Source of the DNA: a virus
Direction: 5' to 3' (one strand)
DNA length: 39,886 nucleotides
Virus record (IMG/VR): IMGVR_UViG_3300045119_000451
Coordinates: 1 to 39,886 of that record
Numbering within the stretch: position 1 is the stretch's first letter; each line of letters opens with the position of its first letter. Of the stretch, positions 1 to 39,886 are shown one piece after another. A program made the translations under genes and the position numbers. The notes under the pieces are model-generated. The model saw nothing but the letters and a program-made list of their open reading frames with translations. It was not told where the DNA came from and ran no database searches.

Positions 1-142
1 GGCGGGAAGATACATGCTGGGTGTCACACGAATGGTGGATGGTCCTGACAGGCAGGTCCGTGCGGCAGTTATCCGCGGTCGATACTTCGCTCCCCGCTGC
101 TCGGTGAGCAGCGGGGAGCCGAAGATATGTGCCGCTGGTCAT
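1..142. repeat. Direct repeat A, copy 1 (window left edge)
   Basis: Positions 1-142 match 37272-37413 with one mismatch (A at 122, G at 37393). The first 121 bases are identical. The copies diverge at 143, directly next to the start codon of the minus-strand micro-ORF inside the repeat. The repeat holds a perfect 13-bp hairpin (89-119) and a micro-ORF starting with the MTSGTYLR peptide. Because the window begins inside the repeat, this edge is probably where an assembler entered an alternative path of a circular genome. Confidence 0.95.
1..142 (-). CDS. MTSGTYLR micro-ORF, cut by the window edge
   Basis: A minus-strand reading frame starts at 142 and runs off the left edge. The complete copy at 37261-37413 shows it would be 50 residues. 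Its ATG overlaps the TGA of the VWA gene in an ATGA arrangement. The first eight codons encode MTSGTYLR, the peptide signature of the linkers in the small-gene array at 37.4-38.9 kb. Much of the rest reads through a hairpin, so the product may matter less than the act of translating it. Function unknown. Confidence 0.45.
   Translation of the reverse strand, partial: MTSGTYLRLPAAHRAAGSEVSTADNCRTDLPVRTIHHSCDTQHVSSR
89..119. terminator. Perfect 13-bp hairpin in repeat A, copy 1
   Basis: Thirteen-base arms, GCTCCCCGCTGCT and its complement, surround a five-base loop CGGTG. No T-run follows on either strand, so intrinsic termination is possible but not proven. It lies at the end of the small-gene array and just upstream of the second recombinase gene in the circular order. 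It could instead be an attenuator or a structured recombination site. Confidence 0.6.
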
Positions 143-753
143 CGCTTCTTGGTGACGTCGCTTTGCACCTTGATCGACTGCCCACCTGGCTTGCCGCGAA
201 GGTTGCTCACCGATGCCGACGTGACGTAGTAGACGTCTTGGGTCGAGCCCGCGTCGTACTGCGTTGTGTTGCGGTTGCCGAGCAGGGCGCCCGTCTTGGC
301 GGCGTCGATGTTGCTGGCGAGGAACACGAACTGCCAGCGGTAGTCGCTCTCTTGCTTCTCCACCATCGCCTTGATCTGGGGATGGGTGTACTCGCGGCTG
401 GCGTTCTCCTGGCCGTCCGTGACGGTCACGAATACGACGTGCTCGGGGCGATCTTCCTCGGGCAGCGCCTTGAGGAACTCGCCAGTGGCGACGATGGCTT
501 TGCCCATCGCGTCGTAGAGCGCCGTCGAGCCGCGAGGCACGAGCGAATAGGCAGGCAGGTTGGCGATCTTGTCGGGACCGAACCGAGACTCGACGGTGTC
601 ATCGAAGTCGAACAGGGTGAACGAGCACTCGCCAGGTTGAGCCTTCTGCTCGTCCACGAAGGTCTTGATGCCGCCCTCGGCATCGGTGCGCGTGTGATGC
701 ATCGAGCCCGAACGGTCGACGACGAGCGTGATGTGGGTGTAACCGAATTTCAT
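139..753 (-). CDS. von Willebrand factor A domain protein (x cassette)
   Basis: This 204-residue protein is a nearly bare VWA domain. The MIDAS metal site is complete: D13-x-S15-x-S17 in the DRSGS motif, T77 in GSTALYD and D113 in VTDGQE. VWA domains bind divalent metal and mediate protein contacts, often as partners of AAA ATPases or as toxin and defence components. No such partner is nearby. The start at 753 has a good AAAGGAG ribosome site seven bases upstream, and its ATG overlaps the preceding gene's TGA. The gene exists only in the x version of the variable segment. Cytoplasmic, since no signal peptide or membrane segment is visible. Its role in the phage is unknown. Confidence 0.85.
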   Translation of the reverse strand: MKFGYTHITLVVDRSGSMHHTRTDAEGGIKTFVDEQKAQPGECSFTLFDFDDTVESRFGPDKIANLPAYSLVPRGSTALYDAMGKAIVATGEFLKALPEEDRPEHVVFVTVTDGQENASREYTHPQIKAMVEKQESDYRWQFVFLASNIDAAKTGALLGNRNTTQYDAGSTQDVYYVTSASVSNLRGKPGGQSIKVQSDVTKKR

Positions 754-992
754 TTGTAGCTCCTTTTGTGAGGGAGATCGACCGGCGAGACAAGAGGATC
801 GGAGAGCCACAGACCGGCCACCGTGTGGGCGGTTGCCAGGCAGCCACCGAAACTGGTGATCGTCGTAATGAGCCAATCCGCCGCGGCTTGTTGGCAGCGG
901 ACTGGCTCACCGGCACAGTGCGAGATACAGACATCACAGTGGTCACCACGCAGGATCATGGGGCGGCGCATACTCCGAAGTTCCCTCGTCAT
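750..992 (-). CDS. Small Cys-rich hypothetical protein (x cassette)
   Basis: An 80-residue protein beginning MTRELRSMRR. Its ATG at 992 overlaps the stop of the upstream gene (ATGA), and its TGA overlaps the ATG of the VWA gene. This two-sided coupling is the main evidence that it is real. The segment HCDVCISHC followed by a further C about seven residues later could bind zinc. The first seven codons lie in direct repeat B. In the y version the same bases begin an 11-residue micro-ORF instead, so this gene may be a fusion of the linker with a new body. An alternative start at codon 8 is possible. No family recognised. Confidence 0.65.
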   Translation of the reverse strand: MTRELRSMRRPMILRGDHCDVCISHCAGEPVRCQQAAADWLITTITSFGGCLATAHTVAGLWLSDPLVSPVDLPHKRSYK

Positions 993-1029
993 TTCCGTGC
1001 GTCCTCGAAGTCCTTGTCGACCGCCAAAC
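971..1029. repeat. Direct repeat B, copy 1
   Basis: Fifty-nine bases identical to 39828-39886, the right window edge. On the minus strand the repeat covers the last codons of the 989-1486 gene, its TGA, and the overlapping ATG of the MTRELRS leader. The copies diverge directly after GGAGTA: x continues TGCGCC and y continues AGGAGC. It marks the second boundary of the interchangeable segment. Confidence 0.95.
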
Positions 1030-3478: not shown

Positions 3479-3792
3479 GGCATCCGACCTGTGCCGAGGC
3501 GAGATCTTGACGATTGCGACGAGCGGCATGTATTTCGTCCGCTATGTTCACTGTCGGTGGCGAAAACACCGGCTGTATTCCCAAAAATGGGATCGACCGG
3601 CGGAACGCATCCGCCCTGGTCACGTAGGAACTCTTGAACCGAAGAGTGCTCAGAGGGATGACGCCCGGACACCTTGTGGCCTCTCGCCGCGAGCCCGGCA
3701 CGAATGGCCGCGATGTGCACGGCGGCCTGCTCCTTGGTCGCCGGGTCGTCACGACCGTCGTGATCGAGAGGCTGCTGCCACTGGCGGCTCAT
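3475..3792 (-). CDS. Hypothetical protein, coding signal weak in the C-terminal half
   Basis: An open frame of 105 residues with ATGA overlaps at both ends. The first ~43 residues (MSRQWQQP ... AAIRAGLAARGHK) have normal GC3-rich codons. The rest, by hand count, has only about half G/C in third positions, is AT-richer, and contains two dyads (3579-3592, 3630-3647). Either the tail is poorly constrained or an ancestral gene was cut short and the second half now acts as a control region for the HAD gene. No family recognised. Confidence 0.5.
   Translation of the reverse strand: MSRQWQQPLDHDGRDDPATKEQAAVHIAAIRAGLAARGHKVSGRHPSEHSSVQEFLRDQGGCVPPVDPIFGNTAGVFATDSEHSGRNTCRSSQSSRSRLGTGRMP
3579..3647. 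promoter_or_regulatory. Dyad pair: third ACTCTT-N6-AAGAGT site and TCCCA-N4-TGGGA
   Basis: The dyad at 3630-3647 is identical to the one at 1518-1535, including its GAACCG spacer. A TCCCAAAAATGGGA dyad lies at 3579-3592. The surrounding ~150 bases are AT-richer than the genome and upstream of the HAD gene, so a control region within the operon is plausible. No clear -10/-35 pair was identified. Confidence 0.4.
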
Positions 3793-4322: not shown

Positions 4323-5271
4323 TGGTGCCTCCTCCCATGATCTCGTCGAACTGTTTTGCGGCGCGATCGGCGACGGAAACTCGGCGCGAACCGACGTTCA
4401 AGATCACGCGTTCGAGCGCGGAAACCGTGGGCCGGCTGCCGCCGACTTCGCGGAACGCCGCGGCGATGACTCCGGGTTCGTGACCTGCTCGCAGCAGCGC
4501 CTTGGCGGTGTTGACGCTGGCGAGGAACCCTGCGGCCGGCTTCTTGCCGTGAGCGGTCTCGAACCAGGTCCACCACCGCTCGATGATCTCTCGGGCCTGG
4601 TCATCGTGGGGATCGGCGGCCGTCGATGGACCTCCGCGCCGTTTCGCTGTTTTCGGCGAAACGGTGTTTTGATCTTGGTTTTGATCTTGATCTTGGTTTT
4701 GAACTTCACCGCGCGCGCGCTTTCCAACAGGCGCGCCCGATGGGAACGTCGCCCCGACCTGGGGTTTCTCCGGTTGGGTCACGCGCGCGTCACGCGTGAC
4801 GCGCGCGTGACCGAGCTGTGACGTCACAGGCATGTCACGCGTGACACGCCCGCGCAGCGCTCGAGACTTTCGCTGTCTCGCGCGGGTCCGTTCGAGCTCG
4901 GCTTCCCGTGCGGCCGCGGTGGTGTTGTAGTCACCGAAGTCGTGCACGAGGTAGCCGCCAGCGCCGTCCTCGTCAATGAGGGCTCCGTACGGCGGGTGGC
5001 ACTCGAGGAGCTCGGGTAGGAGCTTTCGTAGCGACCCTCGCACGCGGGACAGGACCCGTACCGAGCGCATCTCGGTCGATGTGAGCCGTCCGTCGGTTTT
5101 GGTGGCGTAGGTGATGCAGTGGAGCCACAGCCATCCGGCCTCGACCGACACGGCGAGGACCTTCGGATGTGTCGACCAGCCGTCATCCAGGTTCACCGTA
5201 TGTATCGCCTCTCTGTTGAAAAGGAGTGGCGGGGTCAGCGGGGTCCGGGCCGGCGCCGTCGTAGTGGTCAT
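4309..5271 (-). CDS. Replication initiator / replisome organiser-like protein
   Basis: A 320-residue protein. Residues ~10-120 (NLDDGWSTHPKVLAVSVEAGWLWLHCITYA ... SLRKLLPELLE ... DFGDYNTT) resemble the winged-helix DNA-binding domain of phage replisome organisers. A low-complexity linker follows with an Arg/Val/Thr-rich part and QNQDQDQNQDQN. The C-terminal ~100 residues are helical (EIIERWWTWFETAHGKKPAAG) and may contact the helicase. Palindromes and AT-rich repeats in the linker DNA form a candidate origin, as in lambda O. The ATG overlaps the upstream stop. The next gene is a candidate helicase loader. Acts in the cytoplasm. Confidence 0.65.
   Translation of the reverse strand: MTTTTAPARTPLTPPLLFNREAIHTVNLDDGWSTHPKVLAVSVEAGWLWLHCITYATKTDGRLTSTEMRSVRVLSRVRGSLRKLLPELLECHPPYGALIDEDGAGGYLVHDFGDYNTTAAAREAELERTRARQRKSRALRGRVTRDMPVTSQLGHARVTRDARVTQPEKPQVGATFPSGAPVGKRARGEVQNQDQDQNQDQNTVSPKTAKRRGGPSTAADPHDDQAREIIERWWTWFETAHGKKPAAGFLASVNTAKALLRAGHEPGVIAAAFREVGGSRPTVSALERVILNVGSRRVSVADRAAKQFDEIMGGGTNGQR
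4639..4846. other. Candidate replication origin inside the initiator gene
   Basis: A perfect 36-bp palindrome (4777-4812) is centred on TCACGCGTGA. Two 14-bp perfect palindromes follow: CTGTGACGTCACAG (4816-4829) and TGTCACGCGTGACA (4833-4846). To the left, 4671-4702 carries AT-rich direct repeats of GATCTTGGTTTT, and 4639-4664 is a 9-bp-stem hairpin. Binding-site palindromes beside AT-rich direct repeats, inside the gene for the DNA-binding initiator, match the lambda ori layout. Functional assignment is inference. Confidence 0.55.
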
Positions 5272-6319: not shown

Positions 6320-6480
6320 GGCGTGCTCGTGTAGGCGATGAACGTGCCGGGCGCCCGGCTCTTGGCCTTCTGGGTGCGGTGTTCGGTGCAGATCGGGTAG
6401 CGGATCGGGAAGTTGCCGTCGCGGGACCAGATCCATTCGCCGACGGCATCGGCCGTGCAGAAAGGAACGCCGCAGATCAT
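6316..6480 (-). CDS. Small Cys/His protein
   Basis: A 54-residue protein starting MICGVPFC, with a second Cys/His pair in YPICTEH about 20 residues later, so it probably binds one zinc. It directly follows recT with a four-base overlap. This start codon pattern repeats through the operon. Function unknown. Confidence 0.65.
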   Translation of the reverse strand: MICGVPFCTADAVGEWIWSRDGNFPIRYPICTEHRTQKAKSRAPGTFIAYTSTP

Positions 6481-7373
6481 GCCGCTGGCTCCGGAACGGG
6501 CTCGGCCTCCGACACGTCGGCGGTGTCGGTGTCGGAGGTCTCGATGGCGGCGAGCGGTTCGGGTGGTTCACCGGTCACCGCGTCGGCCGGCACTTGGAAC
6601 GACGTGCCGTAGTCGATCATGCCGATGTCGGTGGCCATGGCGTCGATCACGTCGCGGTGCATCGCTTCGCGCAGCTCGACGGACACGGGCATGTAGTTGA
6701 GCCGTGCCCGGATGACGGTCTTGCGGGCCATGGCGTCGAAGTGCTCGACCCACGGACCGGTGATCTCCTTTGTCTTGAAGTCCCGCTGCGAGGCGAACTT
6801 GTCGCGGTGCTCCTCGATCTCGTACACCGACATGATCGTGAACGAGGTGCGGCCGTCGGCGAGTTCTGCGGTGGCGTAGTAGGCCAGTACGTTGCCACGG
6901 GGCCCGAGCGTCTGTTTGTGGCGGAGGAAGCGGTTGGTGCCGAGGGAGTAGTCGTAGTCGTCGTTTTCGTGGAGCTCTTCGGCGTCGACGATGATCCCGG
7001 AACGCGCCGCCAGGTCGATCATGCCCCGATAGCCGAGCTGGAAGGTCGCCTCGAGGACTCCCTTCTTCCGGTTCTCGCGGGGGATCAGGTAGCACTGGCC
7101 GCGCACGTCGGCGACTTCGAGGCCGAGCTGCGCCGCCTGCATCAACCCGGCGAGCACGGACTGCTGGGTGCAGTCGGCGAGTTTCGGCACTACCTGGATC
7201 GCGGTGAACGAGGCACGCAGGAACCGCTCGACTTTGACGTGCTCCGGAAGCGCCATCCGGAAGCCCTCCGTCGATGCGCGGATGGCTTCTCGCAGGGTCA
7301 GCGCAGCGGTCTTGGCAACGTCGCGTTCGACCGCTTTCGCCTCGGCCGCTTTCTGCACGGTACCGGTGGGCAT
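6477..7373 (-). CDS. recT: RecT-family single-strand annealing protein
   Basis: A 298-residue protein matching the RecT family in length and sequence: an N-terminal helical segment (TLREAIRASTEGFRMALPEH), the core with LADCTQQSVLAGLMQAAQLGLE, LIPRENRKKGV, QLGYRGMIDLAARSG, and ITGPWVEHFDAMARKTVIRA, then an acidic disordered tail. It binds single-stranded DNA and anneals complementary strands together with the 5'-3' exonuclease encoded next to it. The start at 7373 overlaps the exonuclease stop by one base (TGATG). Such recombinases also drive mosaic exchange at short homologies, relevant to the linker array at 37-39 kb. Confidence 0.93.
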   Translation of the reverse strand: MPTGTVQKAAEAKAVERDVAKTAALTLREAIRASTEGFRMALPEHVKVERFLRASFTAIQVVPKLADCTQQSVLAGLMQAAQLGLEVADVRGQCYLIPRENRKKGVLEATFQLGYRGMIDLAARSGIIVDAEELHENDDYDYSLGTNRFLRHKQTLGPRGNVLAYYATAELADGRTSFTIMSVYEIEEHRDKFASQRDFKTKEITGPWVEHFDAMARKTVIRARLNYMPVSVELREAMHRDVIDAMATDIGMIDYGTSFQVPADAVTGEPPEPLAAIETSDTDTADVSEAEPVPEPAA

Positions 7374-8341
7374 CAGTCCTCCTTCGGCTTGGACACGCGC
7401 AGCACACGTGTCGTCGTGGTCGTGGTGCACTTCTCGACGAGCGCCAGGTCGGCGGCGCGCAGGGCCTCGAGGTCGACACGGTGTGATTCCTGCTCGCGCC
7501 AGGACGCGATGACGTTCGGGACGGTCGTTCCCTTGCGGCGCCCGGGCTTCCACCCGTCGATCAAGTCGGTGTGATCGCCGAGGAGCGCTCGCAACTCGTT
7601 CGACAGCCGGCCCTCTTCGGCCTCGGCGGCCTTCGTGTACCGCTTGGCGTGCTGGAGCTCGGCGACGAGGCGCAGAGCGCGCTGGTCGGCCTCGAGCTCG
7701 CCGTCGGGGTTGCGGTACACCTCGGTTAGCGCGGTGGTGGTGGCCTCGTGGTCGTCGACGGCCGGCGGTGTGCGGGTGAGCACGTGGTCGCACCAGAAGC
7801 GGCCAGCGGTGGCGAGCATGAAGAGCCAGTCCGACTCGCACTCGGCGTCCCAGTCGACCTCGAACACCTCGACGCGGAAGCCGGCGAACATCACCACGAG
7901 CCAGCAGTGCTGCAGCGTGGTGACACCCATCTCCCAAATGCACTGGGCGCGGATGTTCGCCGGGACGCCATCGGGCCAACCGAAGCGGCCGTCGGTCTTG
8001 AACTGCACCGTGCCGGCCACCTCCTCGGCCGAGCCCCAGCCCTCGTGGTCACTGGCGAAGCCGTCGACCGTGCAGCGCGCCCACGGGTGTTCGGGGTGGC
8101 GCATCCATGCCTGCTCGCCGGAGACGTAGAGCCCTGTCTCGTCGTGGAACTCGAGCGCGAGCACGAGTTCCATGCGCTTGCCGATGCGCTGGCGCTGCGA
8201 TTCGGGTGTCGGTTCGATGAGACCCATGCGCTCGTAGAAGATCGACGTCGGCGATGAGTACTTGCTCAGCCCGATGAGTCCGGCGATGTCGGAGCCGCCG
8301 ATGCCTGTGGCGCGTTCGTCGTGCCAGGCGACGTCGGTCAT
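7373..8341 (-). CDS. YqaJ-type (lambda Exo-like) recombination exonuclease
   Basis: A 322-residue protein with the YqaJ/lambda exonuclease fold: GIGGSDIAGLIGLS near the N-terminus, R/E-rich helix (GKRMELVLALEF), D93 in CTVDGF, then VQFKT, QCIWEM and a long helical C-terminus. Family members degrade one strand of duplex ends, feeding RecT. The usual catalytic E-x-K is Q113-F-K115 here, so the position of the second acidic ligand should be checked before activity is assumed. Overlaps: TGATG with both neighbours. Start at 8341 gives a full N-terminal motif. Confidence 0.85.
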   Translation of the reverse strand: MTDVAWHDERATGIGGSDIAGLIGLSKYSSPTSIFYERMGLIEPTPESQRQRIGKRMELVLALEFHDETGLYVSGEQAWMRHPEHPWARCTVDGFASDHEGWGSAEEVAGTVQFKTDGRFGWPDGVPANIRAQCIWEMGVTTLQHCWLVVMFAGFRVEVFEVDWDAECESDWLFMLATAGRFWCDHVLTRTPPAVDDHEATTTALTEVYRNPDGELEADQRALRLVAELQHAKRYTKAAEAEEGRLSNELRALLGDHTDLIDGWKPGRRKGTTVPNVIASWREQESHRVDLEALRAADLALVEKCTTTTTTRVLRVSKPKED

Positions 8342-8529
8342 CACGCGACCCGTGCCCGTGCTCGATCGATACGATGCCGAACCAGGGGGCAGCGCGCCGC
8401 ATGCCAGAGCGCGATGGCACGTGCGTCGCTGGCCGCCCGGGCGAAGCCGCACGCGCAGTGCGCCCACTCGGGGAACGCGCCATCCGTCCACACGCATCGT
8501 GAACGCCGCTCGGGTGCCGGCCAGTTCAC
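8341..8529 (-). CDS. Small Cys/His protein
   Basis: A 62-residue protein starting with GTG that overlaps the rusA stop (GTGA). CVWTDG, HCACG and LWHAARC provide four Cys and His residues, probably one zinc site. The pattern resembles small actinophage zinc fingers encoded beside recombination genes. Function unknown. Confidence 0.6.
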   Translation of the reverse strand: MNWPAPERRSRCVWTDGAFPEWAHCACGFARAASDARAIALWHAARCPLVRHRIDRARARVA

Positions 8530-9005
8530 AGCAGCGCCGCCTGGCTCGGCCGTGGCACCGTTGCGGCGGCCGACTCGCCGACACGCACGTGCGCGCCGGT
8601 CCACTCGTCGAGCACCTCGAGCTTGCGGGCTCGCAAGTCATGGATGCGGGCGTCGTCGGCGATCAGACGAACGGCCTGGAGGCCGTCTTCGAGGGAACGG
8701 ACGAGCTTCGACAGATCAGGTGTGGTGGTCTTCGCGACAATCCCCGCGAGGCGTATCGCTTTCGTGCGTGAGCGAGGCATGCGGAATCGGAAGATGACGT
8801 CGAGGTAGAGCGCCCCGTCGAGGGGCCGTCCAATGCGTCCCCTTTCGACGAGCGCGGCCTGGGCGACAGCGTCACGCCAGTTCGCCCCGGCCTTACCGGC
8901 GTCTTCGACCATGCGCGCCTTGCCGTTGACGACGAACGCCTTCTTCGAGCCCTGCGGCTGTGGGTCGCCGAACACGTCGAAGGTCACCTCGCAGCCGGCA
9001 CTCAC
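8526..9005 (-). CDS. rusA: RusA-family Holliday junction resolvase
   Basis: A 159-residue protein. The central TTTPDLSKLVRSLEDGLQ and IADDARI give the acidic residues expected for RusA nucleases (D97, D107, D117/D118), and the N-terminus has GDPQPQGSKKAFV as in RusA relatives. It cuts four-way or branched DNA, resolving replication and recombination intermediates before packaging. Its place in the RecT/exonuclease block supports this. GTG start at 9005 overlaps the preceding stop. Confidence 0.85.
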   Translation of the reverse strand: MSAGCEVTFDVFGDPQPQGSKKAFVVNGKARMVEDAGKAGANWRDAVAQAALVERGRIGRPLDGALYLDVIFRFRMPRSRTKAIRLAGIVAKTTTPDLSKLVRSLEDGLQAVRLIADDARIHDLRARKLEVLDEWTGAHVRVGESAAATVPRPSQAALL

Positions 9006-33513: not shown

Positions 33514-35190
33514 TCAGCGGACACGGACCGGGGCACTCATCGGTGGCGGCGCCGGTTGGGCGAGCACCAGGCGGCGCACCATGCGAGCACCGATCATGCA
33601 GACCGCGGCGTCGATCTTCAACGGCGACGACGGTGACGCCTTGCCCACCGACACACCCCAACGATTCGGGCGGCGACGGCAGTTCGCCACATGCCGAGCC
33701 AAGCGAGGATCGTCGTCATGGGTGAAACCACCCTCAGTGATCTCCGCCTCGGCCAACTCGGCGGCCCGGGTGAAATCGACGACATGGTTACGCATGTCCC
33801 ACGCGATCGACTGCGGATCATTCCCCGACTTCGACGGCCACACACGCAACCGGTCGGCGAACCGTTTGGGCCAGTCGATCTTCGTGAAGGACTCCCACTC
33901 GTGCACGTCGGAGAAGAACGCCGCCACATTCAAATTGTCGAACGCGTGCTGCACGGCGGCGTCGACCTGGTCGACAGGGACGACATCGTCGGTGTCGTGT
34001 TTCGGGTCCGGTTCCCATACCGCGACGGTGAACACATGCCCGTCGGAGACACAGCAACCGACGAGCGCGGTGGCATCCCGTGACTTCGAACCGTCGAAGA
34101 ACAGCACGACTTCCTCGGTGGCCGACACGATCCGGGTCCGATCGGCGAGCATCGCCCACGCCTGCGGTGTCGTCCACGATTCCTCGTGGACCGTCGGCTG
34201 ATTCAGATACTTGCGGCGCGACTCCGACGGCTTCGACATCGGCGACCAGACACGTTCGATCAACGCCTTCACGTCGATCTCGCCGTCACGGCCACGCTTC
34301 CAATCGCAGTCGCCGTACACCCACCGCAACGCACGCTCGAGCGACGCGTAGTCGGCGAGCTCCACATCCGGTGGGGCGACGCGGGCGTCGTACAGGATCT
34401 TCGTGTCGCCTCGCAGCCGGCCTTCCTCCTGCGCCACCCACGCATTCCAAGTGCCCTCGGCCACACACTCGATGCCGGGCACCCAGGCGTTCGCCGTCTC
34501 CAACATCCGAGACCCCGACTTGGCCAAGTTGTCAGCCAAGGTGGCAGCGAGCTCGGGCCCAGAGTTCGACGGCTTCCAATGCTCGGTCTCATCGGCAACG
34601 ATGCACGACGCCTCCGCGCCCTCCGACGCCGTCACCGACGACGTGATGATCTCAAGCGTTCCTTCCGGAAGTTTGTAGTAGCGGGTCTTCCCCGGATCGA
34701 GACCGTGTTCCTTGACGACCGCCGAACCCTTCGGCGCGAACGCCCGCACCATTCGCATCGTGTTCGCCGTCTGCGACTCCGCCGTCGCCGCGATCTGCAC
34801 CAGCGGCATATCGACGGCCCGGCCCTTGCACCCGCCCGGCAGACGGCCGTCCTTTCGGGCCAGACGCACCGGAGCGCAGAACTCGATCAGAGCGAGCACC
34901 GCCGCATACGGCGACTTCCCACTCCCCTTAGCCAGACGACGCGCGCCGTGGTGGAACAACCAGCGGCCGTCGGGATCCATCGCATACCACCACAACGTGA
35001 AACGCAGCTGATCGGTCGTCATCCGAAACGGCTTGCCCGCACGCGGACCGTTCGGCTGGATCAACCGCGACTCCGCCCAACGGATCGCTTCCCAACCGAG
35101 GGTGAACTCGGGCTCACCCTCAGGCAAAGTCGACAGACGATTAGCCGGCGCCTCGGAGACGCTTGCGAGCATCAGCGAACCACTCGACAT
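33514..35190 (-). CDS. terL: Terminase large subunit
   Basis: A 558-residue packaging motor. The ATPase domain has Walker A AKGSGKS (about 87-93), and Walker B CIVADETEHW (about 196-205) with the catalytic E after D. The nuclease part has VVLFFDGSKSRDATALVGC with its first acidic residue near 370. The start at 35190 has GGAGGGAG eight bases upstream and overlaps the small-subunit gene by 50 bases. An in-frame ATG at residue 7 is an alternative. Packages and cuts concatemeric DNA. The adjacent HNH suggests cos cutting. Confidence 0.93.
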   Translation of the reverse strand: MSSGSLMLASVSEAPANRLSTLPEGEPEFTLGWEAIRWAESRLIQPNGPRAGKPFRMTTDQLRFTLWWYAMDPDGRWLFHHGARRLAKGSGKSPYAAVLALIEFCAPVRLARKDGRLPGGCKGRAVDMPLVQIAATAESQTANTMRMVRAFAPKGSAVVKEHGLDPGKTRYYKLPEGTLEIITSSVTASEGAEASCIVADETEHWKPSNSGPELAATLADNLAKSGSRMLETANAWVPGIECVAEGTWNAWVAQEEGRLRGDTKILYDARVAPPDVELADYASLERALRWVYGDCDWKRGRDGEIDVKALIERVWSPMSKPSESRRKYLNQPTVHEESWTTPQAWAMLADRTRIVSATEEVVLFFDGSKSRDATALVGCCVSDGHVFTVAVWEPDPKHDTDDVVPVDQVDAAVQHAFDNLNVAAFFSDVHEWESFTKIDWPKRFADRLRVWPSKSGNDPQSIAWDMRNHVVDFTRAAELAEAEITEGGFTHDDDPRLARHVANCRRRPNRWGVSVGKASPSSPLKIDAAVCMIGARMVRRLVLAQPAPPPMSAPVRVR

Positions 35191-35611
35191 CGCCGTCTCC
35201 CTCCGCCGGCGCCAACGGCTTCTGCAACTCGAGCGCCGCCCGACGCCTGTCGCCCTCAGTGGCGAGCAACGCCGTCATGCCCTTCAACCACGCCGCCACC
35301 GACGCCGCCTTCGGAGGGAGCTCGACCATCACGATCTCATCGTCGACCACCATCGGCTGCGCCTTGAACTCCCGCGACATCGACTCCGCCAACACGTACG
35401 CCGTCGCCCAGTCCGACTCAACGTAGTACAGGCTCTGACCCGACCGGGCCAACGAATCGAACCACCTCTTCGCCACCGGATGCCACTTGGCGTTCGACCG
35501 CATCGGCGCACCCGACGCCGAACGAGCCGGCGCCTTCGACACCTCGACGGCGGGCTTGTTCACCCGGCGCCGCTGCTCCGAACGCTTCGGCAGAGGACCC
35601 TTCAGAGCCAC
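35141..35611 (-). CDS. terS: Terminase small subunit
   Basis: A 156-residue, basic then acidic protein. The ALKGPLPKRSEQRRRVNKP start is of the P27-family type, followed by helical ATAYVLAESMSREFKAQ and AAWLKGMTALLATEGDRRRAALELQ. It recognises the packaging site and recruits the large subunit. Positioned between HNH and the large subunit, as in cos-type actinophages. Confidence 0.82.
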   Translation of the reverse strand: MALKGPLPKRSEQRRRVNKPAVEVSKAPARSASGAPMRSNAKWHPVAKRWFDSLARSGQSLYYVESDWATAYVLAESMSREFKAQPMVVDDEIVMVELPPKAASVAAWLKGMTALLATEGDRRRAALELQKPLAPAEGDGDVEWFADARKRLRGAG

Positions 35612-36276: not shown

Positions 36277-37251
36277 TCAGTTGGCGGCACCGATGAACGC
36301 GGCGACCGCGTGCGTCGCGTTGCGTTCGATCCCGCCGCGGTTGCGGTCGTAGAACCGGATCATCGACGAGTCGGCGTGACCGGTCGAGTCGATGATGTCG
36401 CGCTCTGGTACACCGGCATCGAGGGCCATGGTCACGAACGAGTGCCTCAAGCTATGCGGCGTGATGCGCTTGGTCACGCCGATCTTGCGGCACAACCTGC
36501 GCACCGTGCGCCTGGCCGAGCCGACCTTCAGCCGTGTGGTGCCGTCACGGCCGAGCAGCAACGGGCCGCTGGTGCGTCCGTCCATCGAACGTTCGAGCGC
36601 CCACGCGGTACGCACAGCGAGAGCGAGCGTGCCGACCTTGCCACCTTTCCTGTGAGGCAAGTGCAACGTCCGGTAGCCGCGTTCGAAGCCGAGCTCCTCG
36701 ACGTTGGAAGCGAGGCACTCGCCGATGCGCAGACCGTTCAACGCGAGGAGACAGATCAGCGAGTACGTCATCGGCGACTCGGCCTCGGCGGCCTTGAGCA
36801 TGTCGGCGAGCTGCGGACGCGACAGGCCGTTCGAGGTCGACACGAACTCGATCTTCGGCCGGCGTACGTGGGCGGCCGGGTTGACGATCAGGTAGCCGTC
36901 CATCGCAGCGAACTTGTACATGCCACATACTGCGTTCAACTTGGCGGCGACCGAGGCCTTGGCGAGACAGCGTTCCTCGCCGAGGTGTCGGGCCCACGCT
37001 TCGATGTGCGCGCGCTGGGCGTTCAGCACGTCGACACGGTGAAGGATGCACCAGTCGCACCATTGGCGGATCGAGATGGCGTACCCGGCGCGGGTGCCTT
37101 TCGGGTAGCGGGCGAGGAAGCCGCCGATGATGAACTGCAGGGGGTTGGCGGCGACTGCCACCGGGAGCGTACTTTGCTGAGTCACGGGCCTGACCTTCCA
37201 AGGAGGTTGGTGCTCGAGGTGCCCGTTGACGTTCGTAGCGTCGGCGGGCAC
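36277..37251 (-). CDS. Tyrosine recombinase 2, beside the variable small-gene array
   Basis: A complete 324-residue tyrosine recombinase, clearly different from the lysogeny integrase. Core-binding domain ~35-130. Catalytic residues R175 (NGLRIGE), K202 and/or K205 (HRKGGK), H266-x-x-R269 (HSLRH), H292 (TGHAD) and Y301 (FYDR). The GTG start at 37251 is nine bases after the stop of the 50-residue micro-ORF. A downstream GTG would remove 22 residues. It faces away from repeat A and the small-gene array. Possible roles: a second integrase, dimer resolution, or exchange of cassettes in the array. Confidence 0.9.
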   Translation of the reverse strand: MPADATNVNGHLEHQPPWKVRPVTQQSTLPVAVAANPLQFIIGGFLARYPKGTRAGYAISIRQWCDWCILHRVDVLNAQRAHIEAWARHLGEERCLAKASVAAKLNAVCGMYKFAAMDGYLIVNPAAHVRRPKIEFVSTSNGLSRPQLADMLKAAEAESPMTYSLICLLALNGLRIGECLASNVEELGFERGYRTLHLPHRKGGKVGTLALAVRTAWALERSMDGRTSGPLLLGRDGTTRLKVGSARRTVRRLCRKIGVTKRITPHSLRHSFVTMALDAGVPERDIIDSTGHADSSMIRFYDRNRGGIERNATHAVAAFIGAAN

Positions 37252-37270: not shown

Positions 37271-37413
37271 TGGCGGGAAGATACATGCTGGGTGTCACAC
37301 GAATGGTGGATGGTCCTGACAGGCAGGTCCGTGCGGCAGTTATCCGCGGTCGATACTTCGCTCCCCGCTGCTCGGTGAGCAGCGGGGAGCCGGAGATATG
37401 TGCCGCTGGTCAT
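37261..37413 (-). CDS. 50-residue MTSGTYLR micro-ORF in repeat A
   Basis: Starts MTSGTYLRLPAAHRAAGSEV. Its ATG overlaps the preceding TGA (ATGA). It ends TAA nine bases before recombinase 2. The reading frame passes through the hairpin. Apart from the conserved linker start the sequence is low in recognisable structure. It is the last element of the array and may deliver ribosomes to the recombinase gene. Confidence 0.4.
   Translation of the reverse strand: MTSGTYLRLPAAHRAAGSEVSTADNCRTDLPVRTIHHSCDTQHVSSRHSQ
37272..37413. repeat. Direct repeat A, copy 2
   Basis: Matches 1-142 with a single difference. It contains the 50-residue micro-ORF and the hairpin (37360-37390), and ends exactly at the micro-ORF start codon, where the x and y versions part. 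Lies directly upstream of recombinase 2. Confidence 0.95.
37360..37390. terminator. Perfect 13-bp hairpin in repeat A, copy 2
   Basis: Same 13-5-13 hairpin as at 89-119, without a T-run. It could attenuate transcription from the small-gene array into recombinase 2, or be part of a structured recombination site. Confidence 0.6.
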
Positions 37414-37571
37414 GGCTCGGCCTGAGTGGTCACGGCGAGGTGAGCGAGGAACGACGCCGTTGCCTCGTCCTCGGTGTCGACCAACGGCCCCATCCAGTCG
37501 CAAGAGCACTCGGCGTGGACACGGCTCCCGTGGATGAACGCTCGACAGATGTACTGCGTGTGCCTCGTCAC
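37410..37571 (-). CDS. Small Cys-containing protein (y cassette)
   Basis: A 53-residue protein starting GTG. It contains YICRAF, VHAECSCDWMGPLVDTEDEA and SFLAHL, with three cysteines plus His as a possible zinc site, and resembles small actinophage proteins with HxxCxCxW. Its GTG overlaps the stop of the micro-ORF upstream (GTGA). Function unknown. Confidence 0.6.
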   Translation of the reverse strand: MTRHTQYICRAFIHGSRVHAECSCDWMGPLVDTEDEATASFLAHLAVTTQAEP

Positions 37572-37600
37572 GGCTGGTCCCGAAGATATGCGCCGCTCAC
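37568..37600 (-). CDS. SGAYLR relay micro-ORF
   Basis: Ten codons, MSGAYLRDQP, starting GTG. The start overlaps the upstream stop (GTGA) and its TGA overlaps the next GTG (GTGA). A member of the conserved linker family, with TATCTTCGG in place of TATCTCCGG. Confidence 0.5.
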   Translation of the reverse strand: MSGAYLRDQP

Positions 37601-38010
37601 TCGAACTCCAGCGGCTCGTCCAGTTCGTACGCCGAGCGGAGGCCGTTGATGAACCGCTCGGTCGTTGTCGCCCAGTTGCGGATGTGCCCTGTCCCATCGC
37701 CCATCTCGACCAACTTCGGGAGCAGCGTCTCCAAGCGGAGGGCGAGCCAGTGGCAATCCTTCGGCTCGATCTCACCGTCGCAGTCGGAGTGCACGAGCAG
37801 AATGAGCAACGGATCTTCGGGCGGGCGGCCGCCCCAGTGCCCCTGGTAGTTGTCGGGCGACCAGTTGCCGTTGATCACAGGACTGGCGAACCTCGCACCG
37901 CTCTCGGTCTCCACCAGGTCGTAGCCAGCGATCTCGGCCAGCGTGGTGCGCCAGCGATGGAAGGCGGAGTACGCACCGCTCCACGCGTCGTGTGAGCAAT
38001 CGAGGCCCAT
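37597..38010 (-). CDS. Conserved hypothetical phage protein (MGLDxSH)
   Basis: A 137-residue protein beginning MGLDCSHDAWSGAYSAFHRWR, with PPEDPLLILLVHSDCDGEIEPKDCHWLALRLETLLPKL. The pattern MGLD-x-S-H-D-x-W-x-G-A-Y-S-x-F and HSDCDG recurs in uncharacterised proteins of phages and bacteria as far as I recall. Role unknown. AGGAGG lies seven bases before the ATG, within the preceding micro-ORF, which itself stops on this ATG (TGATG). Confidence 0.75.
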   Translation of the reverse strand: MGLDCSHDAWSGAYSAFHRWRTTLAEIAGYDLVETESGARFASPVINGNWSPDNYQGHWGGRPPEDPLLILLVHSDCDGEIEPKDCHWLALRLETLLPKLVEMGDGTGHIRNWATTTERFINGLRSAYELDEPLEFE

Positions 38011-38048
38011 CAGCCCTCCTGGTCCCGGAGATATGTGCCGCTGGTCAT
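38010..38048 (-). CDS. MTSGTYLRDQEG relay micro-ORF
   Basis: Twelve codons. The ATG overlaps the upstream TGA (ATGA) and its own TGA overlaps the next ATG (TGATG). It contains an exact copy of AGCGGCACATATCTCCGGGA, the array consensus, followed by the AGGAGG ribosome site of the next gene. Confidence 0.5.
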   Translation of the reverse strand: MTSGTYLRDQEG

Positions 38049-38128
38049 GTCCGCTCTCCTGGCGCCCACCAAGCGAGCAGAGCGAGCGCGAAGGCGACGG
38101 CACCGACCACGACGTAGTAACCGATCAT
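38045..38128 (-). CDS. 27-residue membrane peptide (y cassette)
   Basis: A micro-gene starting MIGYYVVVGAVAFALALLAW, essentially one membrane helix with a short tail (WAPGERT). Both ends overlap relay micro-ORFs by four bases. Function unknown. Confidence 0.55.
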   Translation of the reverse strand: MIGYYVVVGAVAFALALLAWWAPGERT

Positions 38129-38160
38129 GGACGCGCCCGGAGATATGCAGCGCCGGTCAT
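38125..38160 (-). CDS. MTGAAYLRARP relay micro-ORF
   Basis: Eleven codons. Start and stop overlap the flanking genes, both as ATGA. The variant nucleotide word GGCGCTGCATATCTCCGGG retains the AYLR codons. Confidence 0.5.
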   Translation of the reverse strand: MTGAAYLRARP

Positions 38161-38312
38161 TGCCCTTCCTCAAGCAGGAACACGCGGTCCTCGTCGGACA
38201 GCATCGGGTCGGCCAACAGCGCTCGTTCCTCGTCCTCCTCGGTGCTGTCCTCATTGCCGAGGGCACTCATGAGCAGCGCGTGTTGCGGGTCCGCGTCGGC
38301 CCAGTCAGTCAT
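38157..38312 (-). CDS. Small acidic protein (y cassette)
   Basis: A 51-residue, strongly acidic protein starting MTDWADADPQHALLMSALG, with EDSTEEDEER and SDEDRVFLLEEGQ. It has no cysteines or membrane segment. Could be a protein-binding inhibitor or DNA mimic (speculative). Linked to micro-ORFs at both ends. GGAG precedes the start. Confidence 0.55.
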   Translation of the reverse strand: MTDWADADPQHALLMSALGNEDSTEEDEERALLADPMLSDEDRVFLLEEGQ

Positions 38313-38374
38313 CCGAACCGCTCCTTACTCCGAAGGTTGGCCGGGCGCGGTGCCCGGAGATAACTACCGGCCAC
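38309..38374 (-). CDS. GSYLR / LRSKER relay micro-ORF
   Basis: Twenty-one codons starting GTG inside the end of the upstream gene. It reads MAGSYLRAPRP then ANLRSKERFG, so it joins both linker words: the GSYLR start and the LRSKER end also found at 39814-39849. The LRSKER codons contain the AAGGAG ribosome site of the next gene. It stops on the next ATG (ATGA). A CCGGGC-N5-GCCCGG hairpin lies within (38341-38357). Confidence 0.5.
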   Translation of the reverse strand: MAGSYLRAPRPANLRSKERFG

Positions 38375-38840
38375 GCGGCACCGTCACGCCTAGACCGAAG
38401 TCGATGACGACGTTCTCGCCAGGGCCGACAGGAAAGCCGTCGATGTCGATCGTGATGTGGTCGCCGTGATCGGCGGCCTCGGCGCCCTCATCGTCGGGTT
38501 CGCAGTCGAGGAACTCCGAGATCCCTTCGGGCATCGGCACGTCGTCGAGGTGTGCTTCCCACTCCGGGTTCGTCTTGAACCACTCGACACGCTTGAGTGT
38601 CGCTTTCGTCTTGTCGACGGTGGCGTGCACGCTTTCGACGATCCAGGTCGTCTTCATGCTGGTCTCCTTGGATGGGGCTAGGGCTTCGAGCCGGTCGGCT
38701 GCTTCGCCGAGCAACGCGGCGATCTGGTCGGCCTCTGCTACTTCACCGGACGTGGGACCGGCGGCAACGGCGTCAGGGATCAACTCCCGCAGCTCGGCGA
38801 CGATCTCGGCCACGTCCCGGAGATAACTACCGCTCGACAT
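38364..38840 (-). CDS. Acidic protein with MSSGSYLRD linker fused to its N-terminus (y cassette)
   Basis: A 158-residue protein. It starts MSSGSYLRD, the array linker, and continues without stop into a helical domain (VAEIVAELRELIPDAVAAG ... AEADQIAALLGEAADRLEAL). Then comes SMKTTWIVESVHATVDKTKATLKRVEWFKTNPEWEAHL and an acidic C-terminus (EFLDCEPDDEGAEAAD). A strong AAGGAG before the internal MKTTW methionine (near 38655) suggests a second, ~97-residue product. The fusion shows the linker can become part of a protein. Function unknown. Confidence 0.65.
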   Translation of the reverse strand: MSSGSYLRDVAEIVAELRELIPDAVAAGPTSGEVAEADQIAALLGEAADRLEALAPSKETSMKTTWIVESVHATVDKTKATLKRVEWFKTNPEWEAHLDDVPMPEGISEFLDCEPDDEGAEAADHGDHITIDIDGFPVGPGENVVIDFGLGVTVPRGR

Positions 38841-38979
38841 CGAGGCTCCTGAAGTAGTGCGGCGGCAGGTTGTCGCGGCCGACCGACTCGTGCGAGACGC
38901 AGAGCGGGCGCCATTCGTGGGCCGGTTCGAACCAGTATTCGCAGGTCGCCACATCGTCACCGAACCAGCACAGCGTCAT
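38827..38979 (-). CDS. Small Cys/His protein (y cassette)
   Basis: A 50-residue protein starting MTLCWFGDDVATCEYWF, with LCVSHE downstream. C4, C13 and C27 with a following His may bind zinc. ATG overlaps the methyltransferase stop. The TAG is 14 bases inside the next gene's linker start. Function unknown. Confidence 0.6.
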   Translation of the reverse strand: MTLCWFGDDVATCEYWFEPAHEWRPLCVSHESVGRDNLPPHYFRSLDVER

Positions 38980-39626
38980 GCCGCGGCCCTCAGGTGGTCG
39001 GCGAGCTGCCGACCGAGCCACTCGGTGTAGGCGGGCGGGATGGCCTGCGAACGTTCCGCCCGAGTCATCCAATCGATCCCCATCGCGGCGCGCTCGTCGG
39101 CGGCGCAGGGAGGATGGCCGACGACCGCGGCGAACTTGGCGCGCTGGCCGTTGCCGGCACCGGCCCCGTTCCCGGTGATCGAGATGGCCGGCCCCGTGTG
39201 AGCGCACGGCGCCATCAGGGCGAAGCCGAACCACGAGGTCTCGAACCACCGCTCACGGCGCAGATACGGCAGGTCGAACATGCACCCGCACAGCTTGAAG
39301 TCGGCTCGCATCGGCGCGCCGGGCACGTTCTCGATCACCCACGGCGTCGACTGCTCGCGCAGTCGCGCCCGGGTCGGTGCCAACAGGTCGGGATAGACCT
39401 TGCCCCGAGCCCGCAACGCGTTCGTCGCCGAGCTGTAGGCCTGGCACGGCGGGGACGCATGGATGGCGTCGTACCCGTCGAGCGGCCACGTCATCGCGTC
39501 GCCCTGGTGCAACTCGAAGGGGTAGTTCGGCTGCGGTTCGATGTCCACGCCCACGACCTCGAAGCCGGCGCGGTGGTAGCCCATCGCCGCGCCGCCCGCG
39601 CCGCAGAAGAGGTCGAGCAGTCTCAT
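38976..39626 (-). CDS. C5 cytosine DNA methyltransferase
   Basis: A 216-residue compact enzyme. Motif I DLFCGAGGAAMGYHRAGF (5-22), motif IV ASPPCQAYS with catalytic C61, motif VI ENV (99-101), motif VIII-like RRER (123-126), and a motif X-like end AIPPAYTEWLGRQL. It transfers methyl from SAM to C5 of cytosine. The short target-recognition part (~127-190) is smaller than in bacterial enzymes. No paired restriction gene is seen, so defence against host restriction is the likely use. Present only in the y version. Confidence 0.92.
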   Translation of the reverse strand: MRLLDLFCGAGGAAMGYHRAGFEVVGVDIEPQPNYPFELHQGDAMTWPLDGYDAIHASPPCQAYSSATNALRARGKVYPDLLAPTRARLREQSTPWVIENVPGAPMRADFKLCGCMFDLPYLRRERWFETSWFGFALMAPCAHTGPAISITGNGAGAGNGQRAKFAAVVGHPPCAADERAAMGIDWMTRAERSQAIPPAYTEWLGRQLADHLRAAA

Positions 39627-39817
39627 GGCCGCGCCATCCGTCGTTCGCGGCGCTGCCGTTTGCGTCTCGCGCTGGTCAGACCGAGGTCGTCCCACCATCC
39701 GTTGCACTTAGGACAGACCACCACGACGTGACGGCGCAGCCCGATCCAGACGGAGACGAGCACGTTGCCGTGCGTGCCGTCCTTCCAGTACGGGCAGACC
39801 TCGGGCGCTCGCTTCAC
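39623..39817 (-). CDS. Small zinc-ribbon-like protein (y cassette)
   Basis: A 64-residue protein starting GTG that overlaps the micro-ORF stop. CPYWKD near the N-terminus and VVVVCPKCNGWWDD give three cysteines, with a very basic tail (RRKRQRRERRMARP) suggesting DNA or RNA binding. AAGGAG lies seven bases upstream. Overlaps the methyltransferase start by four bases. Confidence 0.65.
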   Translation of the reverse strand: MKRAPEVCPYWKDGTHGNVLVSVWIGLRRHVVVVCPKCNGWWDDLGLTSARRKRQRRERRMARP

Positions 39818-39849
39818 GACCGCTCCTTACTCCGAAGTTCCCTCGTCAT
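39814..39849 (-). CDS. MTRELRSKERS relay micro-ORF
   Basis: Eleven codons. The ATG overlaps the shared upstream gene's TGA and the stop overlaps the next GTG (GTGA). It spans the ribosome site AAGGAG of the next gene. In the x version the first seven codons are the same but continue into an 80-residue protein. Confidence 0.5.
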   Translation of the reverse strand: MTRELRSKERS

Positions 39850-39886
39850 TTCCGTGCGTCCTCGAAGTCCTTGTCGACCGCCAAAC
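39828..39886. repeat. Direct repeat B, copy 2 (window right edge)
   Basis: Fifty-nine bases identical to 971-1029. It is the point where the y path rejoins the shared core, supporting a circular molecule of 38,857 bp for the y version. Confidence 0.95.
39846..39886 (-). CDS. 3' end of the 989-1486 gene, cut by the window edge
   Basis: The last codons (... GLAVDKDFEDARK and TGA) of the hypothetical gene fully present at 989-1486. The rest lies beyond the right edge, which is equivalent to position 1030 on the circle. Confidence 0.85.
   Translation of the reverse strand, partial: LAVDKDFEDARK

What the first reader, a model, noticed from the sequence alone, without database searches (positions are those of the whole stretch)
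37568..38840. Repeated SG(T/A/S)YLR relay micro-ORFs link the genes of a small-gene array
Seven copies of a sequence close to AGCGGCACATATCTCCGGGA occur on the minus strand (near 122-142, 37393-37413, 37578-37600, 38026-38048, 38138-38160, 38351-38374, 38817-38840) and not elsewhere in the window by eye. Each encodes M-(T/S)-(S)-G-x-Y-L-R at the start of a micro-ORF. In all seven the start overlaps or lies just inside the stop of the gene before, and in four the micro-ORF stop also overlaps the start of the next gene. A second word, CTTCGGAGTAAGGAGCGG (LRSKER), is shared by two linkers and holds a ribosome site. One copy is fused in frame to a real protein. The start-associated sequences of cluster K mycobacteriophages are the nearest known analogy, but those are not peptide-coding linkers between genes.
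Basis: seen in the sequence. Interest (0 to 1): 0.85.

Follow-up and report, generated by a model that had tools for sequence, protein, structure and literature searches.

The report
Repeated mini-gene linkers in phage array
In an environmental phage of actinobacteria, a row of small genes is joined by copies of one short sequence that also reads as a tiny gene overlapping its neighbours, and the whole row exists in two swapped versions, as if the copies were standard connectors for exchanging genes.

Summary
The core TATCT(C/T)CGG occurs seven times in the window, always at gene 3' ends on the minus strand and nowhere else. In every copy it lies in a start-bearing frame reading (S/A/G)(G/A)(T/A/S)YLR. 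Four copies between genes, plus the LRSKER linker, form micro-ORFs interlocked with both neighbours. Only 1 of 29 comparable gaps in four annotated actinophages is bridged this way.

The simplest reading is a circular genome carrying two alleles of the array, a multi-gene version and a two-gene version with a vWA protein. The alleles diverge inside the LRSKER linker on one side and at the YLR linker on the other.

Best explanation: the words are short boundary sequences at which cassettes are exchanged, probably by the phage RecE/RecT system. Their ORF design keeps translation of neighbouring genes coupled. The exchange step and translation itself are inferred. The core codons are rare ones, so nucleotide identity is also kept or recently copied. 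No relative with the word was found, so peptide against DNA conservation remains open. This is a new variant of a known kind.

The parts
39814..39849 (-). Lk0: linker micro-ORF MTRELRSKERS*, start 4 nt over the stop of the flank gene, stop 4 nt over the start of g2; holds CTTCGGAGTAAGGAGCGG
   Evidence: alleles diverge right after CTTCGGAGTA
39623..39817 (-). g2, 64-aa small Cys-containing protein (GTG start)
38976..39626 (-). cytosine DNA methyltransferase, 216 aa
   Evidence: PHROG 363, E 2.6e-40
38827..38979 (-). g4, 50 aa
38364..38840 (-). Lk7 (YLR copy 7) fused in frame to g5, 158 aa, MSSGSYLRDVAEIV...
   Evidence: SD -6.6
38309..38374 (-). Lk6: micro-ORF VAGSYLRAPRPANLRSKERFG*, carries both the YLR and the LRSKER word, bridges g5 and g6
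38157..38312 (-). g6, 51-aa acidic protein
38125..38160 (-). Lk5: micro-ORF MTGAAYLRARP*, ATGA overlaps at both ends
38045..38128 (-). g7, 27-aa hydrophobic (membrane-like) peptide, no own SD (-2.3)
38010..38048 (-). Lk4: micro-ORF MTSGTYLRDQEG*, ATGA then TGATG
37597..38010 (-). g8, 137 aa, PHROG 11026; homologues end at the same residue, so the linker is outside the native gene
37568..37600 (-). Lk3: micro-ORF VSGAYLRDQP*, bridges g8 and g9
37410..37571 (-). g9, 53 aa (GTG start)
37390..37413 (-). Lk2: last YLR copy of allele A, no gene in phase after it
37360..37390 (.). GC-rich hairpin closing the array (candidate terminator without U-tract)
   Evidence: -41.2 kcal/mol, z -5.0
119..142 (-). 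Lk1: same last YLR copy in allele B (one C/T difference in the core)
139..753 (-). allele B: vWA-domain protein, 204 aa, PHROG 7371
750..992 (-). allele B: Lk0 frame (MTRELRSM...) fused to gene B1 (80 aa; internal ATG at 959)
1..146 (.). repeat of 37272-37417: shared right flank of the two array alleles
   Evidence: 99%
971..1029 (.). repeat of 39828-39886: shared left flank of the two array alleles
   Evidence: 100%
36277..37251 (-). tyrosine integrase directly beyond the array
6477..7373 (-). RecT-family annealing protein, proposed agent of exchange
   Evidence: (TIGR00616, 180.6 bits over cut-off 52.65)
7373..8641 (-). RecE-like exonuclease
   Evidence: PHROG 434, 1.1e-66

Best explanation
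The YLR word, and the second word LRSKER, are short repeated junction sequences of a variable small-gene array in an actinobacterial siphophage genome. Each YLR copy sits at the 3' end of a gene. Recombination between copies, most likely by single-strand annealing with the phage's own RecE/RecT, lets genes be inserted, lost or swapped as cassettes; the contig catches two such versions. Each junction is also a minimal ORF whose start overlaps the previous stop and, between genes, whose stop overlaps the next start. A junction can therefore sit between two genes without breaking stop-start translational coupling, which is the usual gene spacing in this genome's early region. Shown: repeat, positions, interlocking frames, ribosome sites, two alternative contents between identical flanks. 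Inferred: that the two versions are alleles of one population, that annealing at the words made them, and that the micro-ORFs are translated.
For: Seven cores, all at gene ends of the array and nowhere else. Alternative contents between shared flanks: 1-146 = 37272-37417 (99%) and 971-1029 = 39828-39886 (100%), with divergence starting inside Lk0 and at the 5' end of the last YLR copy. The g8 homologues in other phages end at the same residue and carry no linker, so the linker was added at the native gene end. 5 of 5 linker gaps are bridged against 1 of 29 control gaps; a random-spacer model gives about 9e-4 for the four YLR bridges. Good ribosome sites precede Lk0, Lk3, Lk4, Lk5 and Lk7 (-5.9 to -7.4, background median -2.0), but not the two terminal copies, which lead to no gene. 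RecE, RecT and RusA are present. Stop-start overlap dominates early-gene spacing. Red/Rad52-like phage recombinases recombine diverged sequences (abstracts of PMC2327257, PMC3945230), and ATGA/TGATG overlaps can give coupling (abstract of PMC6728339).
Against: No second genome with the word was found, so exchange at the words is seen only through one contig whose ends could be an assembly artefact. The word is only about 20-24 nt, short for efficient annealing. The junctions g2/methyltransferase and methyltransferase/g4 have no linker. Translation of the micro-ORFs is untested. Copies share descent, so their frames are not independent observations.
Confidence: 0.5

Rival explanations
1. Neutral scars: the words are copies of the 5' end of one gene (for example g5, MSSGSYLRDVAEIV) left behind by repeated insertion and deletion. 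The interlocking is a by-product of ATGA junctions and nothing is selected now.
For: Copy 7 is the start of a real-looking gene with a good ribosome site. Copies are close to identical, up to 24 nt, as recent duplicates would be. Core codons are rare, unlike a tuned coding sequence.
Against: All seven keep a start codon in frame; length differences between copies are whole codons; all four YLR linkers between genes close exactly on the next start, against 1 of 29 controls. g5 has no homologue in the phage collection to show it is the source.
Confidence: 0.2
2. The word is a DNA or RNA site for a regulator, like the stoperators of cluster A mycobacteriophages (asymmetric, one orientation, overlapping gene ends), and the frames are incidental.
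For: Asymmetric core, single orientation relative to transcription, at gene ends; nucleotides conserved at wobble positions. Cluster A stoperators are described as in intergenic regions or overlapping gene ends in one orientation (PMC3029335).
Against: All copies lie within one 1.5-kb array and its alternative version, none elsewhere in the genome, whereas 23-36 sites per genome are reported for cluster A. No promoter-like match at the copies. Does not explain the frame closure.
Confidence: 0.13
3. The octapeptide itself acts, for example as a nascent-chain signal that times or links translation of neighbouring genes, and the word is conserved for the peptide.
For: SG(T/A/S)YLR is kept while third positions change in some codons (CTC/CTT, GGC/GGT) and residue 3 varies only among small residues. 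Two rare codons in a row (ACA/GCA/AGT-TAT) could slow the ribosome.
Against: TAT is used in 7 of 7 although it is 13% of Tyr codons, so nucleotides are conserved too. The two terminal copies have no gene after them. No similar peptide recurs in 2.0 Mb of other phage and fetched DNA.
Confidence: 0.1
4. Integron-like array: the tyrosine integrase next to the array uses the words as recombination sites to collect gene cassettes.
For: Single orientation, site at the 3' end of each gene, integrase adjacent; an imperfect inverted match (GCGGCAGTTATC) lies between hairpin and integrase at 37331.
Against: The integrase scores 56.7 bits against the integron-integrase model, whose cut-off is 265, and looks like a general phage/Xer-type enzyme. 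The word has no evident paired arms like attC; the inverted match is within the null range for the window. The second array boundary (LRSKER) is a different sequence.
Confidence: 0.04

Closest known systems
Start-Associated Sequences (SAS/ESAS) of cluster K mycobacteriophages and similar repeats in Microbacterium phage clusters EC, EF, EG, EI (PMC3203893, PMC7302621)
   Same: Short repeated asymmetric words at boundaries of many unrelated small genes in one actinophage genome, mostly one orientation.
   Different: Those sit at a fixed place before a start codon (SAS in the ribosome site; EC/EG repeats 14-30 bp upstream). Here the word sits on the upstream gene's stop, 8-41 nt from the next start, is in an open frame, and two copies precede no gene.
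Short conserved boundary sequences proposed for phage mosaicism, and the 29-bp direct repeat flanking a 1.35-kb cassette in mycobacteriophage LRRHood (PMC3029335)
   Same: Short repeat at a gene's 3' end marks the exact edge of exchanged DNA.
   Different: LRRHood has two copies of one repeat around one cassette; here up to six copies per genome punctuate an array, and the repeat doubles as a coupled micro-ORF.
Stop-start translational coupling (ATGA/TGATG), for example PMC6728339
   Same: Same overlap types at both ends of the linkers.
   Different: Known cases couple two real genes; here a repeated 10-21 codon ORF is interposed.
Integron gene cassettes
   Same: Gene plus 3' site units in one orientation beside a tyrosine recombinase.
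   Different: No attC-like structure seen and no integron-type integrase.

Membership tests
Cluster K-type Start-Associated Sequence | 13-bp word GGGATAGGAGCCC (or local equivalent) immediately upstream of a start codon, in the ribosome-site position | tested here: not met
   Word is different; it lies on the upstream stop, 8, 14, 8 and 41 nt before the next start in Lk3, Lk4, Lk5 and Lk6, and no gene follows in Lk1/Lk2
Cluster A stoperator | Many copies through the whole genome | tested here: not met
   Copies only in the array and its allele
Cluster A stoperator | Bound by the phage repressor | not testable with these tools
   Needs a binding assay
Phage boundary sequence / cassette-flanking repeat | Repeat marks the edge between shared and exchanged DNA | tested here: met
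   Divergence of the two array versions begins within Lk0 and at Lk1/Lk2; rests on one contig
Phage boundary sequence / cassette-flanking repeat | Same sequence at the same junction in independent related phages | tested here: inconclusive
   No relative with the word or the array in IMG/VR, phages or terminase/RecT relatives
Integron | IntI-type integrase | tested here: not met
   TIGR02249 56.7 bits against cut-off 265
Integron | attC sites with paired inverted core sites | tested here: not met
   By inspection the aligned copies show no conserved inverted arms; only the final hairpin is palindromic
Translationally coupled gene | Start overlaps upstream stop by 1 or 4 nt, with ribosome site | tested here: met
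   Lk0, Lk3, Lk4, Lk5; Lk6 and Lk7 start 11-14 nt inside, Lk6 without SD
Translationally coupled gene | Translation of the second ORF depends on the first | not testable with these tools
   Needs reporter or ribosome profiling

The most novel reading that the evidence does not exclude
A phage uses a standard, self-translating adaptor: one repeated 24-nt connector that is at once a recombination handle and a coupled micro-ORF, so that any gene dropped into the array is automatically joined to a translation relay. It would be a plug-in gene array that works without a site-specific recombinase.
Probability: 0.3. Interest if true: 0.75.

Novelty: new variant of a known kind. Interest (0 to 1): 0.52.

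Why it matters
How unrelated small genes are joined so cleanly in phage genomes, often with stop and start overlapping, is an old question, because conserved boundary sequences are missing at most mosaic joints. A repeat that marks exchange edges and also keeps stop-start coupling would be a concrete answer that can be tested with a reporter construct.

Tried and rejected
Word elsewhere: 49 IMG/VR contigs with GCGGCNCATATCTYCGG were each single, unrelated matches; CGGTAGTTATCTCCGGG gave none; LRSKER gave 29 single matches, not examined further; phage blastn gave only weak Rhizobium matches at E about 3. Relatives: 80 viral and 10 genome loci by terminase (up to 77% identity) and 7 by RecT lack the word, and the array is not found beside them, apart from a 47% identical methyltransferase near RecT in L185-L187; the one core match in the RecT set, in L191, is a single one. 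The integrase and the left flank gene had no relatives. Promoter reading of the word: no match. Prophage att-site reading of the duplicated ends: rejected because the identical stretches (146 and 59 bp) run to the contig ends on opposite sides, as overlapping flanks of a circular genome do. Microbacterium EC repeats as the same thing: fetched Quhwah; its ACTATAGGTGTAAGC repeats lie in longer gaps that no micro-ORF bridges. Synonymous/non-synonymous test among copies: too few changes to decide.

Full report
What the window is. The window is one IMG/VR virus record of 39,886 bases with a siphophage gene set on the minus strand: terminase, portal, capsid, tape measure, RecE, RecT, RusA, replication initiator and a tyrosine integrase. 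Terminase relatives lie mostly in actinobacterial genomes and reach 66% identity there, 77% in viral contigs. GC is 67%.

The observation. The core TATCTYCGG has exactly seven matches, all on the minus strand and all at gene ends of the small-gene array or its alternative version. A weight matrix leaves a gap from 24.6 to 15.7 before the next, chance-level site. The array in reading order is Lk0 39849, g2, methyltransferase, g4, Lk7 fused to g5, Lk6, g6, Lk5, g7, Lk4, g8, Lk3, g9, Lk2, hairpin, integrase. Every gene from g4 to g9 is followed by a copy; g2 and the methyltransferase are not.

The interlock. Lk3, Lk5 and Lk6 close on the next gene with a 4-nt overlap and Lk4 with TGATG. The LRSKER linker Lk0 does the same with GTGA. 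So all five linker-filled gaps are bridged, against 1 of 29 gaps of 16-77 nt in Quhwah, MementoMori, Fruitloop and Sibs6 (Fisher about 2e-5 by my arithmetic, with the reservation that the linkers share descent). With random spacers of similar length the four YLR bridges have a joint probability near 9e-4. Ribosome-site strength is good before Lk0, Lk3, Lk4, Lk5 and Lk7 and weak before the terminal copies and Lk6. Genes g7 and g9, behind Lk5 and Lk3, have weaker sites of their own (-2.3 and -4.0) than g6 and g8, behind Lk6 and Lk4. A scan of 2.04 Mb of fetched DNA found no other strand with a non-arginine peptide recurring in three or more bridging micro-ORFs.

Two versions of the array. Window 1-146 repeats 37272-37417 with 99% identity, and 971-1029 repeats 39828-39886 with 100%. 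Placed on a circle, the same left flank (the gene ending ...DFEDARK) leads either into the multi-gene array or into two genes, B1 and a vWA protein. Both versions then enter the same last YLR copy, hairpin and integrase. The versions part after CTTCGGAGTA within Lk0, and at the 5' edge of the last YLR copy apart from one C/T difference in its core. In the short version the Lk0 frame is fused to B1. I read this as two alleles of one phage population joined into one contig. I cannot see reads, so this remains an inference.

Where the linkers came from. Homologues of g8 in mycobacteriophages, Bacillus phages and seven IMG/VR contigs align to its last residues, and the seven IMG/VR contigs read here have no such sequence behind them. 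The linker is therefore a feature of this genome added at native gene ends. The word was not found elsewhere as a repeat.

Peptide or nucleotides. In the peptide's favour, starts are kept in frame, length differences between copies are whole codons, and the third residue is always small. In favour of the nucleotides, the core uses codons this genome avoids: TAT 13% of Tyr, ACA 6.5% of Thr, GCA 6.4% of Ala, AGT 3.6% of Ser, CTT 1.6% of Leu. With seven related copies and no relatives this cannot be settled; recent copying explains both.

Mechanism. I favour junction sequences for cassette exchange, kept as open frames so that a junction does not interrupt coupling. Exchange by RecE/RecT annealing fits the genes present and published work on Red/Rad52-like recombinases (abstracts of PMC2327257, PMC3945230) but was not tested. 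Coupling by termination-reinitiation at ATGA/TGATG is established in general (abstract of PMC6728339).

Comparison. Repeated words at small-gene boundaries are a known kind in actinophages (PMC3203893; PMC7302621), and so are cassette-flanking repeats (LRRHood in PMC3029335). The new points are the position on the upstream stop, the double interlock and the association with two array versions. Hence a new variant of a known kind.

Noticed in passing
1-146 / 37272-37417 and 971-1029 / 39828-39886: Contig ends repeat inner sequence on both sides of two different gene contents; most simply a circular genome with two array alleles.
   Followed up: yes
1505-1575 and 3617-3654: Three copies of an inverted-repeat motif (clearest as AACTCTTGAACCGAAGAGTT) near the downstream end of the early genes; looks like a regulator's operator.
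   Followed up: no
4778-4867: Dense palindromic GTCACGCGTGAC-type repeats at the replication initiator gene; candidate origin iterons.
   Followed up: no
37360-37390 and 89-119: GC-rich hairpin (-41 kcal/mol with flanks, z -5.0) without a T-run between array and integrase; candidate terminator of a type without U-tract.
   Followed up: partly
37331-37350 (+ strand): Imperfect inverted match to the YLR word (GTGCGGCAGTTATCCGCGGT) between hairpin and integrase; chance level for the whole window but notable for its place, possibly part of attP.
   Followed up: partly
35141-35563: ORF just upstream of the terminase matches PHROG 226 (minor tail protein, 5e-17), an odd place for a tail gene.
   Followed up: no
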